From Bacillota bacterium (GTDB taxonomy: Bacteria > Bacillota_I > Bacilli_A > RF39 > UBA660): DNA of 64,000 nucleotides. The stretch covers positions 923,811 through 987,810 of the forward strand of contig SVAI01000001.1 in assembly GCA_015059495.1 (NCBI GenBank). Direction: 5' to 3'. The translations under genes were made by a program, and so were the position numbers. The notes under the pieces are model-generated. The model did not search any database and was not told the DNA's origin. It saw only the letters and a program-made list of their open reading frames with translations. Of the stretch, positions 26,423 to 30,738 are shown piece after piece; position 1 is the stretch's first letter, and every line of letters begins with the position of its first letter.

Positions 26423-27625
26423 ATGAAAAAGAAAATAATAGTTTTAATATCAATACTTTTAATTATTCTAATAGGTGTAATCTTAAAATTGACAGTATTT
26501 AAAAAAGTAACCACAGTAATTACACCATTAAATAACCTAGATTTTGAATATAATCAAGAAGTATATCTATTAGATACCATATCAATTATAGATGGAATAA
26601 TAATAGATCAAAATTATTTATTAGATACAGACTCTCTAGGAGAAAAGGAAATAACTATTAATTATAAAAACTCAAATGGATGGAAAAAGAAATATACTTA
26701 TAAATATAATGTAAAAGATACAACATCACCTATATTTTCTATATCAAAAAACACATATATAGAAGTAAATGCAGATGTTAATTCAATATTAAATAAAATA
26801 TTTGCAGGAGATAATTGTGATAGAAAGTTAGACTTTACAATCGAAGGAGATTATGACGTATCAACAGTTGGTAATTATGACATAAAAGTAATCGCTACAG
26901 ATGATTCAAATAACAAAACAGAAAAAGAAACAACTCTACATGTATATGAAAGAAAAAATACAACCAACAATAATACTAATAATAATCAAGTAAATGAAGG
27001 TACACCTTTATCTTACTTTATTAAAAATTATAGAAGTACTAATACTTCATTTGGGTTAGATTTATCAACATATCAAACTGTCGAAGATTTCAACCTAGTT
27101 AAAGAACAAGGAATAGACTTTGTTATGCTTAGAATTGGCTGGGGTCCAAATGAAGATATGACTTTTAATACTGACAAAAAATTCGAAGACTTTTACCAAA
27201 GAGCAAAAGAAGCAAACCTAAAAGTTGGAGTATATTACTTTTCATATGCTACAACTTTAGATGAAGTAGATTTAGAAGTTAACTATGTACTCGATATGTT
27301 AAAAGATAAAGAACTAGATCTACCTATAGCGTATGACTGGGAAAACTGGAATCTATTCAAAGACTGCAATATGAACTTTACTGATCTAAATAAAATGGCT
27401 AAAAAGTTTATGGATAAATTAAAAGATAAAGGATACCAAGTAATGAACTATTCATCTAAATATTATCTTGAAAACATATGGCAAACAGATGAATATGACA
27501 CATGGTATGCACAATACTACAAAGAAGCAACTACAACTAAAAAATTTAAGATATGGCAAATATCTGATGAAGGTAAAGTTGAAGGTGTTAATAATCTAGT
27601 AGATATTAACATCCTATATAATTAA
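26423..27625 (+). CDS. Membrane-anchored GH25 lysozyme with Ig-like domains
   Basis: FGLDLSTYQTVEDFNLVKEQGIDFVMLRIGWG, YDWENWN; N-terminal TM; DDNCDxxLD Ig-like region. Confidence 0.85.
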   Translation: MKKKIIVLISILLIILIGVILKLTVFKKVTTVITPLNNLDFEYNQEVYLLDTISIIDGIIIDQNYLLDTDSLGEKEITINYKNSNGWKKKYTYKYNVKDTTSPIFSISKNTYIEVNADVNSILNKIFAGDNCDRKLDFTIEGDYDVSTVGNYDIKVIATDDSNNKTEKETTLHVYERKNTTNNNTNNNQVNEGTPLSYFIKNYRSTNTSFGLDLSTYQTVEDFNLVKEQGIDFVMLRIGWGPNEDMTFNTDKKFEDFYQRAKEANLKVGVYYFSYATTLDEVDLEVNYVLDMLKDKELDLPIAYDWENWNLFKDCNMNFTDLNKMAKKFMDKLKDKGYQVMNYSSKYYLENIWQTDEYDTWYAQYYKEATTTKKFKIWQISDEGKVEGVNNLVDINILYN

Positions 27626-29059
27626 GCTAATATTAACATTATTAGCTTTTTTTATTTCTTTAATAAACATAGATTCATTAAACATAGGGGTTAATAAATA
27701 AACATAACTTTTAGTTCTAGTTAATGCAACATAAAACAATCTTCTCTCTTCATCCAGTGTTTCTTCTCCTTTAAGTAAACTAATTACTTCATTATCTTTA
27801 ACTCTACCAGGCATACCATATATATCATTACTCATATTAAGTATAATAACTACATCACTTTCTAATCCTTTAGAGGAATGAATAGTCATATACTTTAATC
27901 TTTTATCTACATTATCAATATATAATTCATTGTTAATAATTTCATAATTATTAACATATTTTTTTATATCAAAATTATTTCTAGATAATATTAAAATATC
28001 TTCACTATTAATTTTCTTTAATAATTTAATTAATACATTATCTTCATTAAAATAATAAATAATATTAATTGGATTCTTTAGATGTATATCACTAACTAAA
28101 TTTTTCTTTATTTGTTTATCGTTCTTGTTTATAAATGATCCAGCAACATCAATCAACTCTTGTGAATTACGATAAGTCTTATTTAAATAAAATACTTTAG
28201 TATCTTCATAATAATTATTAAAGTTAATAAACAAATCTAAATCACATCCTTGAAATTTATATATAGATTGATAATCATCTCCTACTACACATAATTTAGT
28301 ATGATAATTATCAACAATAGATTTAATTAAATTAAATCTAAGTAATGATGTATCTTGAAACTCATCAATAATAATATACTTATATGGTATTTTAATTTGT
28401 TTATTAACAATAACTTCATTAGCTTTAATTATCATACTATCAAAATCTATTAGATTAGAACTACTTAACTCATTTAAATATAATGTGTATAAACTATAAA
28501 TTATTAACAATATATTTTGATACTTTTTATTCTTTAACAATTCACTCCATTTATATTCTAGATCATTACTTCTCATATAACTAATAAATGACTTAATTAA
28601 TTTCTTTAATTCAATATATTTATAACTATTTAAAAATTTCTTATAATAATATTTTTTAAATACATATATATTAAGATATTTATATATAATTTTAATTAAT
28701 ATTTCATTACCAAAACAATTTGTATTAAAATACTCATCTATTAACTTATCAAAGTAATCATCACTAACTATTTCATAACAAATATTAGCTCTATCTAATA
28801 TATTTAAAGATAATTTATGAAAAGTAAATACATCTATATTTTTATTAGTTAAATCATATATTTTATTTTTTAAGCTATCAACAGCTTTATTAGTATACGT
28901 AATAGCACATATCTCATCTTCTTTTAATATATTATTATCTAATAAATATTTAATCTTATTGACCATAGTAAAACTCTTACCAGAACCTGCTCCAGCAATA
29001 ACCATTGATACATCAGATGTATCTTCAATAATACTTTTTTGTTCATCACTTAAAGTCAT
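27614..29059 (-). CDS. UvrD/Rep-type helicase, short form (start at MTLSDEQ after AAGGGGG)
   Basis: VIAGAGSGKSFTMVNKI, YIIIDEFQDTSLLRF, VGDDYQSIYKFQGCDL, MTIHSSKGLESDVVIIL. Confidence 0.88.
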   Translation of the reverse strand: MTLSDEQKSIIEDTSDVSMVIAGAGSGKSFTMVNKIKYLLDNNILKEDEICAITYTNKAVDSLKNKIYDLTNKNIDVFTFHKLSLNILDRANICYEIVSDDYFDKLIDEYFNTNCFGNEILIKIIYKYLNIYVFKKYYYKKFLNSYKYIELKKLIKSFISYMRSNDLEYKWSELLKNKKYQNILLIIYSLYTLYLNELSSSNLIDFDSMIIKANEVIVNKQIKIPYKYIIIDEFQDTSLLRFNLIKSIVDNYHTKLCVVGDDYQSIYKFQGCDLDLFINFNNYYEDTKVFYLNKTYRNSQELIDVAGSFINKNDKQIKKNLVSDIHLKNPINIIYYFNEDNVLIKLLKKINSEDILILSRNNFDIKKYVNNYEIINNELYIDNVDKRLKYMTIHSSKGLESDVVIILNMSNDIYGMPGRVKDNEVISLLKGEETLDEERRLFYVALTRTKSYVYLLTPMFNESMFIKEIKKANNVNISLII

Positions 29060-29068
29060 ATATCCCCC

Positions 29069-29097
29069 TTGAATAATAAATAAAACTATGTTATAAA
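29069..29097 (+). promoter_or_regulatory. Sigma-A promoter for putative antisense RNA
   Basis: TTGAAT-N17-TATAAA with TGn extended -10 (TGTTATAAA). Confidence 0.6.
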
Positions 29098-29103
29098 TTA
29101 AGT

Positions 29104-29214
29104 ATGGACACACCTGATATAGACTGTATCAGTGTGCATGTGCCATTTTGGTGGTTATGCACTAACTGACCAAAACCCCCTTTAGGTTAAAATCAGTTAA
29201 TGCACTTTTTATTT
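29104..29214 (+). ncRNA. Putative antisense antitoxin RNA overlapping 3' region of toxin mRNA
   Basis: Starts about 7 nt after the -10, ends at the intrinsic terminator at 29158-29214; antisense to minus-strand small-ORF transcript. Confidence 0.5.
29158..29214 (+). terminator. Intrinsic terminator of putative antisense RNA
   Basis: TGCACTAACTGA...TCAGTTAATGCA followed by CTTTTTATTT. Confidence 0.65.
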
Positions 29215-29224
29215 ATAAAAATAA

Positions 29225-29293
29225 CTACTTACAAAGAAGTATGATTATGATTACAATTAATAAGATGATTATAGAATAGACTTTTCTAGTCAT
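29225..29293 (-). CDS. 22-aa hydrophobic peptide, putative type I toxin
   Basis: ATG...TAG: MTRKVYSIIILLIVIIIILLCK with SD AAAGGAGGG 5 nt upstream; own promoter. Confidence 0.6.
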   Translation of the reverse strand: MTRKVYSIIILLIVIIIILLCK

Positions 29294-29363
29294 AAACATC
29301 CCTCCTTTCGATAAGAAAGGCACATGCACACTGATTTTCACCTATATTAGGTGCGTCTTGTTT

Positions 29364-29392
29364 TATATATCACAATTAAAAAATACTGTCAA
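29364..29392 (-). promoter_or_regulatory. Sigma-A promoter for the 22-aa peptide
   Basis: TTGACA-N17-TATATA with TGn extended -10 on minus strand. Confidence 0.7.
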
Positions 29393-29473
29393 AAAGCAAA
29401 AATTCAATTATTGAGCAAAAAAAATCGACAATAATTTAATTATTGTCTAAGGCAAAAATTGAATAACTGTATA

Positions 29474-29512
29474 AAAAAAAGATACAACTTTTCAAAAGTT
29501 GTATTTTTTTAT
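29474..29512 (-). terminator. Enolase terminator
   Basis: ATACAACTTTTGAAAAGTTGTATCTTTTTTTT. Confidence 0.75.
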
Positions 29513-30738
29513 TTTTTTAAATTTTCTTCAATAGTTACTAGTCTATTGTACTTAGCAATTCTTTCTCCTCTAGATAAAGAACCAGCTTTAATATAAGGAA
29601 TAGCTAAACCTACTGCTAAGTCTGAAATAAATGTATCCATTGTTTCACCACTTCTGTGTGAAATAACCATTTTATAATTATTTCTCTTAGCAAGCATTAT
29701 AGTTTCAATCATTTCAGTTATAGTACCAATTTGATTTGCTTTAAGTAATACTGCATTACCAGCACCCATTTCAATACCTTTTCTTAAGAATTCTTTATTA
29801 GTAACAAAATAATCATCACCAACAAGCATAATCTTATCACCTAACTTAGTAGTTATAGTTTCAAATGATTTAAAGTCTTCTTCAAAGAAAGGATCTTCGA
29901 TACTAATTATTGGATACTTTTCAGTTAAATAAACATAGTAATTAGCTAATTCATCAGCAGTTACTTGCTTTCCATCTAAAGTATACTTTTGACTTACTTC
30001 ATCATACATAGATGTTGCAGCACAATCTAGTGCAACAAATACATCTTTACCAGGAACATAGCCACTCTTTTCAATTGCATCAACAATCAATGCTATAGCT
30101 TGTTCATTCGAATCAAGTCTTGGAGCAAATCCACCTTCATCTCCAACACTAACATTTAATTTCATAGACTTTAATATACCTTTTAAAGTATGGAATATTT
30201 CAGATCCTGCTCTTAGTCTTTCTTTAAATTCTTTAACAACAGGAACAATCATAAACTCTTGAATATCTAATCCACTATCAGCATGTTTACCACCATTAAT
30301 AATATTCATCATTGGAATTGGCATAGTAACTCTACCAGTAGATACATATTCATATAATTCCTTATTATGAGCCATAGCACCAGCCTTTAAACATGCTAGT
30401 GATACACTTAATATAGCATTGGCACCTAAATTAGTTTTAAATTCAGTACCATCCAATTTTAATAATAAATCATCAATCTTATTTTGTTCAATTGGTTTAC
30501 CTACTAAAGCATTTTTAATAACTGTATTAACATTTTCAACAGCTTTTAAAACACCTTGTCCATGATATCTCTTTTCGTCTTTATCTCTTAACTCTAAAGC
30601 CTCATGAACACCAGTTGAAGCACCAGATGGAACACTAGCAGTTGCAATAACTCCATTTTCCAATCTAACAGTTGTTTCAACAGTTGGATTACCTCTTGAA
30701 TCTAATATTTCATGTGCAAATATATCTTTTATTATCAT
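29509..30738 (-). CDS. eno: Enolase
   Basis: AHEILDSRGNPTVE, GDEGGFAP, ISIEDPFFEEDF, SHRSGETMDTFISDLAV. Confidence 0.97.
   Translation of the reverse strand: MIIKDIFAHEILDSRGNPTVETTVRLENGVIATASVPSGASTGVHEALELRDKDEKRYHGQGVLKAVENVNTVIKNALVGKPIEQNKIDDLLLKLDGTEFKTNLGANAILSVSLACLKAGAMAHNKELYEYVSTGRVTMPIPMMNIINGGKHADSGLDIQEFMIVPVVKEFKERLRAGSEIFHTLKGILKSMKLNVSVGDEGGFAPRLDSNEQAIALIVDAIEKSGYVPGKDVFVALDCAATSMYDEVSQKYTLDGKQVTADELANYYVYLTEKYPIISIEDPFFEEDFKSFETITTKLGDKIMLVGDDYFVTNKEFLRKGIEMGAGNAVLLKANQIGTITEMIETIMLAKRNNYKMVISHRSGETMDTFISDLAVGLAIPYIKAGSLSRGERIAKYNRLVTIEENLKK

What the first reader, a model, noticed from the sequence alone, without database searches (positions are those of the whole stretch)
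29069..29392. Unannotated candidate type I toxin-antitoxin locus between UvrD-like helicase and enolase
Seen directly on the minus strand: TTGACA-N17-TATATA (extended -10), a ~65-nt leader, SD AAAGGAGGG, and a 22-codon ORF MTRKVYSIIILLIVIIIILLCK (short charged N-terminus, then an uninterrupted hydrophobic helix). Converging on the plus strand: TTGAAT-N17-TATAAA (extended -10), driving a ~110-nt RNA that ends in an intrinsic terminator (29158-29214) and is fully antisense to the toxin mRNA 3' region. Two convergent consensus promoters, a tiny membrane peptide and a 3'-overlapping antisense RNA match the architecture of characterised type I modules (TxpA/RatA, BsrG/SR4, Fst). The peptide does not resemble the families I can recall by sequence; composition is closest to Ibs/TisB-type peptides. 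The ORF track misses it because of its length.
Basis: partly seen in the sequence, partly recalled or inferred. Interest (0 to 1): 0.86.

Follow-up and report, generated by a model that had tools for sequence, protein, structure and literature searches.

The report
New hydrophobic-peptide toxin–antitoxin RNA family

Summary
The 22-codon ORF, both promoters, the leader and the antisense terminator are as described. The module occurs five times in this 1.26-Mb genome, plus one solo antisense gene, and in three of four other genus members searched. Covariance searches find it across the bacterial family: about 72 of 295 genomes at E<1e-9, often 5-10 copies, some in tandem. The peptide consensus is M-T/S-K-R/K-E/D...IIILLL...LL-K, under coding selection (dN/dS about 0.22). 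The RNA fold is strongly supported: the toxin mRNA leader pairs with its own 3' end, the SD and AUG sit in hairpins, and 23 of 64 pairs show compensatory changes (0 of 500 shuffles). The antisense terminator is present in every module scanned, and an extended -10 promoter recurs at a near-constant place in most. Pfam, NCBIfam, PHROGs and Rfam give nothing above cut-off; Rfam BsrG is nearest, far below threshold. Best reading: a new type I toxin-antitoxin family, BsrG/TxpA-like in layout with a Hok/AapA-like 5'-3' lock. Transcription and toxicity are untested.

The parts
29104..29357 (-). inferred toxin mRNA (about 255 nt), folding into a closed multibranch structure
   Evidence: MFE -99.5 kcal/mol, z -11.5 against dinucleotide shuffles; ends inferred from the promoter and from the paired 3' arm
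29387..29392 (-). toxin promoter -35 TTGACA
   Evidence: sequence
29364..29369 (-). toxin promoter -10 TATATA, extended (TGA before it)
   Evidence: sequence; TTGTGATATA conserved in copies
29319..29357 (-). 5' leader arm of the long-range helix
   Evidence: inverted repeat with 29107-29144; cognate pairing test
29304..29320 (-). hairpin that holds the Shine-Dalgarno (CCUUUC...GAAAGG)
   Evidence: folds; compensatory change to CCUUAAU...AUUAAGG in the fifth copy
29300..29308 (-). Shine-Dalgarno AAAGGAGGG
   Evidence: sequence
29225..29293 (-). 22-codon ORF, hydrophobic peptide MTRKVYSIIILLIVIIIILLCK
   Evidence: sequence; family alignment; purifying selection
29107..29144 (-). 3' arm of the long-range helix of the toxin mRNA
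29069..29074 (+). antisense promoter -35 TTGAAT
   Evidence: sequence; TTGACT in other copies
29092..29097 (+). antisense promoter -10 TATAAA, extended (TGT before it)
   Evidence: sequence; ATGTTATAAA conserved
29104..29214 (+). inferred antisense RNA (about 110 nt), antisense to the toxin mRNA 3' part
   Evidence: covariance model R1 finds 5 copies in the genome; single-strand folds z -2.8 to -5.6
29158..29216 (+). intrinsic terminator of the antisense RNA
   Evidence: stem plus T run; found in all modules scanned
29386..29480 (-). upstream element with two palindromes (29396-29416, 29427-29447) abutting the toxin -35; possible operator, shared with one other toxin copy and an ssb gene

Best explanation
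A chromosomal, multicopy type I toxin-antitoxin module. Shown by sequence comparison: a conserved hydrophobic peptide of 21-30 residues with its own strong RBS; a conserved convergent RNA gene whose terminator lies just past the ORF stop; and a toxin mRNA whose 5' leader pairs with its 3' end while the SD and start codon sit in local hairpins. Inferred: the full-length toxin mRNA is held translationally silent by this fold; the antisense RNA pairs with the toxin mRNA 3' region (complementary over about 110 nt) and leads to its decay; if antisense transcription drops, surviving mRNA is translated and the peptide inserts into and damages the cell membrane. A further inference is that the antisense 5' end and the toxin leader compete for the same toxin 3' arm, because they are near-identical in sequence.
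For: Five toxin copies in the genome, each with an antisense gene. Copies in G001, G002, G003 and in many other genera. Of 20 weaker R3 hits fetched, 19 encode the peptide and one appears to have an in-frame stop at codon 4. Coding: dN/dS about 0.22 in 28 distinct 25-aa ORFs, pN<pS in 370 of 378 pairs, differences by codon position 1489/887/2313. RNA: cognate leader/3'-arm duplexes average -44.4 against -27.6 kcal/mol for non-cognate, 0 of 50000 permutations as good; 97.2% of cells paired, 23 pairs with double-sided changes, 0 of 500 shuffles, slid controls 38-43% paired. Antisense terminator in all 45 module entries scanned (43 distinct) and a TTGANA-N17-TG.TATNAT-like promoter at a near-constant place in most. 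Literature for the layout: PMC6562991 (txpA, bsrG, bsrE antitoxins pair at the toxin mRNA 3' end; RBS sequestered), PMC6733600 (5'-3' long-distance interaction in aapA).
Against: No transcript data and no toxicity test. The SD stays buried in 3'-truncated folds as well, so the Hok/AapA activation route (3' trimming frees the SD) is not predicted. In the window copy the toxin mRNA lacks a clear U-tract terminator, unlike the MTKRE-type copies, and could read on into the helicase gene. G004, of the same genus, has no detectable copy, so the module is dispensable.
Confidence: 0.85

Rival explanations
1. A small membrane peptide with a beneficial regulatory or membrane role (not a toxin), whose mRNA is controlled by an antisense RNA; the layout is toxin-like but the peptide is not harmful at native levels.
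For: Strong conservation of the peptide, unusual for type I toxins, which often drift (PMC6562991 on BsrG); chromosomal, not found on public phages or plasmids.
Against: Layered locking of translation (SD hairpin, start hairpin, 5'-3' helix) plus an antisense gene, multicopy tandem arrays, patchy presence and solo antisense genes are typical of toxin-antitoxin loci.
Confidence: 0.1
2. A miniature mobile element whose terminal inverted repeats happen to surround a short ORF; the inverted arms are transposase sites and not an RNA helix.
For: Multicopy, inverted repeat near the ends, tandem copies, contigs ending at copies.
Against: The arms differ between copies but change together within each copy; they begin at the inferred transcription starts; homology between copies runs on through the toxin promoter and upstream element; flanks are kept between two species; the SD hairpin and the ORF are under their own constraint.
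Confidence: 0.03
3. A leader-peptide or attenuator device for the downstream gene (here the UvrD-like helicase).
For: The window ORF is co-oriented with and just upstream of the helicase gene, which shows no obvious promoter of its own.
Against: Neighbouring genes differ from copy to copy; at L010 the downstream gene appears to be on the other strand; an antisense gene with its own terminator lies between.
Confidence: 0.02

Closest known systems
bsrG/SR4 and txpA/RatA (Bacillus subtilis type I modules)
   Same: Antisense RNA overlaps the toxin mRNA 3' end by about 100 nt; SD held in a short helix; small single-helix membrane peptide (PMC6562991). The Rfam BsrG model aligns end to end with the window toxin mRNA (29357-29098).
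   Different: BsrG model score 16.1 bits against a cut-off of 55; peptide of 22 aa with no detectable relation to Pfam or NCBIfam families; copies sit among chromosomal genes.
aapA/IsoA (Helicobacter pylori) and hok/Sok
   Same: 5'-3' long-distance helix in the full-length toxin mRNA, local SD hairpins, several chromosomal copies (PMC6733600).
   Different: Here the antisense RNA covers the 3' part of the toxin mRNA; the predicted SD remains buried after 3' trimming.
Fst/RNAII (par of pAD1)
   Same: Convergent promoters, small membrane peptide, terminator hairpin inside the overlap (from general knowledge).
   Different: No direct repeats shared by the two RNAs; the repeat here is inverted; peptide not alike.
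Ibs/Sib (Escherichia coli)
   Same: Very short, almost wholly hydrophobic peptide (recalled, composition only).
   Different: Sib covers the toxin gene itself (general knowledge); here the antisense RNA ends just past the stop codon.

Membership tests
Type I toxin-antitoxin (kind) | small hydrophobic peptide gene with RBS, conserved as protein | tested here: met
Type I toxin-antitoxin (kind) | antisense RNA gene complementary to the toxin mRNA, with promoter and terminator | tested here: met
   by conserved sequence signals only; no transcript data
Type I toxin-antitoxin (kind) | peptide is toxic | not testable with these tools
   needs an expression assay
Type I toxin-antitoxin (kind) | antisense RNA represses the toxin | not testable with these tools
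   needs a reporter or Northern
BsrG/TxpA family | Rfam BsrG covariance model above curated cut-off | tested here: not met
   16.1 bits against 55; weak matches also in L008, L078, L153
BsrG/TxpA family | antitoxin pairs at the toxin mRNA 3' end | tested here: met
   geometry of the two genes
BsrG/TxpA family | toxin peptide homologous to a curated family | tested here: not met
   no significant Pfam or NCBIfam hit
hok / aapA-like lock | 5'-3' long-range helix in the toxin mRNA | tested here: met
hok / aapA-like lock | 3' truncation exposes the SD | tested here: inconclusive
   predicted SD accessibility 0.18 full, 0.21-0.22 truncated in the window copy; energy model only
Fst/RNAII family | direct repeats shared between the two RNAs | tested here: not met
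   no direct repeat family in 28900-29520
Ibs/Sib family | antisense RNA covers the whole toxin gene | tested here: not met
   antisense terminator lies between the ORF stop and the 3' arm

The most novel reading that the evidence does not exclude
A lineage-wide, previously unknown type I toxin-antitoxin superfamily in which the antisense RNA 5' end is a sequence mimic of the toxin leader, so that the two compete for the toxin mRNA 3' arm, with some toxin promoters wired to the same operator as a single-strand DNA-binding protein gene (a DNA-damage or competence trigger).
Probability: 0.25. Interest if true: 0.8.

Novelty: new member of a known kind. Interest (0 to 1): 0.66.

Why it matters
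Type I toxin-antitoxin loci are reported from few phyla, and their narrow spread is thought to reflect search bias (PMC12390103). This family was invisible to Pfam, NCBIfam, PHROGs and Rfam, yet occurs in about a quarter of the sampled species of one uncultured Bacilli family, often in many copies in genomes near 1 Mb. It comes with a covariation-supported RNA fold that can be turned into a search model, and with ready test cases: tandem arrays, solo antisense genes and a genus member without it.

Tried and rejected
Rfam at curated cut-offs: no match in the window. Pfam, NCBIfam, PHROGs, PDB sequences: nothing significant. Leader pattern CCTTTCTTN{0,14}RAAGGAG across the family: mostly chance or coding hits outside the genus, true ones in genus g64. 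Weak R1 hits L033 and L034 lie in or beside unrelated genes. BLAST hits L011-L014, L016, L017 and L019 are AT-rich chance matches. R3 hits weaker than about E 1e-9 are not trusted: the model has no base pairs and 256 of 295 genomes pass 0.01. Mobile-element, leader-peptide and phage/plasmid-cargo readings were considered and disfavoured (see rivals). Papers joining RF39 (the lineage name I would guess, not tested) with toxin-antitoxin: none.

Full report
Observation. The described elements are in the sequence at the stated places. The consensus promoter scan by itself would not make the case. The terminator and the tiny ORF would be weak evidence alone; conservation decides.

Copies in the genome. 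The window lies in a single 1,256,952-base contig. The module recurs at C1:341.7k, 572.2k and 759.6k and as a diverged fifth copy at 771.7k, found while following the upstream element and confirmed by model R2. Peptides: MTRKVYSIIILLIVIIIILLCK (window), MDKRVYHICILLLIIIIMLLMK, MSNKVYFVIILLFVVIFTLLGIIIYK, MSNKVYFIIILLFVVIFTLLGIIIYR, MNKYSYVIIILLIITIILMIIN. Next to the 341.7k copy there is a second, solo antisense gene; another solo antisense gene lies in G003.

Relatives. G001, G002 and G003 of the same genus carry copies; none was detected in G004. Records that match by name are rumen, roe-deer and other MAGs called Tenericutes, Erysipelotrichaceae or Bacilli. I take this to be an uncultured Bacilli lineage; its GTDB name was not tested. 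Models R2 and R3 then reached other genera. The commonest form is MTKRExSxFIIILLLFFIVITLLFK; a second is MSKKDFLIVILLIIIILLIIYR. About 72 of 295 family genomes (my count from the table) have a hit below E 1e-9. To check that threshold I fetched 20 of the weaker listed hits: 19 encode the peptide; the remaining one (L235) appears, from its neighbouring frame, to read MTK-stop-EIS, a broken copy. Tandem arrays occur, e.g. three copies 347-350 bp apart in G119. A peptide profile searched in 398 genomes of the class hit only members of this family, 14 genomes; a 22-position profile is weak, so absence elsewhere is not proven.

Coding. In 28 distinct 25-codon ORFs pooled dN/dS is about 0.22 and 370 of 378 pairs have pN below pS. 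Window against G002: one change, synonymous. Part of the constraint on the DNA is structural, so the exact ratio is only indicative.

RNA fold. The inferred full-length toxin mRNA folds at -99.5 kcal/mol, z -11.5; without the 3' part z is only -1.9. The leader arm and the 3' arm change together: window GUGUGCAUGUGCC/GGCACAUGCACAC, 759k copy AGGUGUGCUUGUGCC/GGCACAACACCU, G003 GAAUGUCUUGUGCC/GGCACAACAUUC, and quite different sequences in other genera. Across 18 representatives the cognate duplex mean is -44.4 against -27.6 kcal/mol, 0 of 50000 permutations. In a 24-sequence alignment 97.2% of cells pair, 23 of 64 pairs have double-sided changes, none of 500 shuffles reaches this, and slid structures fall to 38-43%. 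Relatedness can inflate the shuffle test, and the structure was derived from the same alignment; the cross-genus permutation is the more independent check. The SD hairpin covaries too (CCUUUC/GAAAGG to CCUUAAU/AUUAAGG). In MTKRE-type copies the 3' arm is followed by a U tract, so the 3' arm is part of the toxin mRNA terminator; the window copy lacks a good U tract.

Antisense. The terminator on the antisense strand just past the stop codon was found in all 45 module entries scanned (43 distinct), and a -35/extended -10 pair recurs about 150 nt from the ORF end in most (two entries lack the flank). Because the toxin leader is complementary to the 3' arm, the antisense RNA, also complementary to that arm, begins with nearly the same sequence as the toxin leader. 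The two should compete for the 3' arm; this is inference.

How it works, committed view. Transcription makes a locked toxin mRNA; the antisense RNA pairs with its 3' half and marks it for decay, as shown for txpA, bsrG and bsrE (PMC6562991); the lock guards against leaky translation, as in aapA (PMC6733600). Loss of the antisense RNA lets the peptide be made, and a bare hydrophobic helix with basic ends would perturb the membrane (general knowledge of type I toxins; PMC8309996). Shown: genes, fold, selection. Inferred: silence of the locked form, decay, toxicity. Open: how the SD is ever freed, since it stays buried in 3'-shortened folds.

Upstream element. A 95-bp stretch with two palindromes about 32 bp apart abuts the toxin -35. 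It occurs 94% identical in front of a stand-alone ssb gene and 84% identical in front of the 341k toxin copy, and also at ssb in G004, which lacks the module. Co-regulation with ssb is a lead only.

Known families. Nothing above cut-offs. The Rfam BsrG model spans the whole window mRNA at 16.1 bits (cut-off 55) and gives faint hits in three other loci: alike in layout, not a member. Verdict: a new type I toxin-antitoxin family, strongly supported in anatomy, unproven in action.

Noticed in passing
window 29386-29480; C1:79835-79928; C1:341627-341720: 95-bp upstream element with two palindromes (GACAATAATTTAATTATTGTC and a variant) 32 bp apart, shared by two toxin promoters and a stand-alone ssb promoter; possible common regulator.
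   Followed up: partly
L005 (C1:342049-342202) and L036 (G003:C6:39360-39422): Solo antisense genes without a toxin partner; remnants or trans-acting antitoxins. The first resembles the window antisense more than its neighbour.
   Followed up: partly
L080 (G175:C30:7300-8500): A different hydrophobic-peptide pair (read by eye: MKQIKEILQLSCILVILLIIFISIIKY, MRQLKSLLDKLIIILVLLFILKLTFVIFR) 355 bp apart, with the same kind of SD hairpin CTCCTTTC...GAAAGGAG: perhaps a second type I family.
   Followed up: no
window 29171-29181 and equivalents in L102, L032, L078: The element GGGGGUUUUGG in the toxin 3' UTR is conserved even where it lies outside the antisense terminator; role unexplained.
   Followed up: no
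window 27614-29113: The helicase ORF is better started at ATG 29059-29057 behind AAGGGGG (29070-29064); its SD region overlaps the antisense promoter, and it shows no clear promoter of its own.
   Followed up: no
L235 (G195:C2:20750-21700): A copy that appears to carry an in-frame TGA at codon 4 of the peptide, i.e. a decayed toxin.
   Followed up: partly
L006 9-1403: A BspA-like repeat protein gene upstream of the ssb gene, with many near-identical repeats.
   Followed up: no
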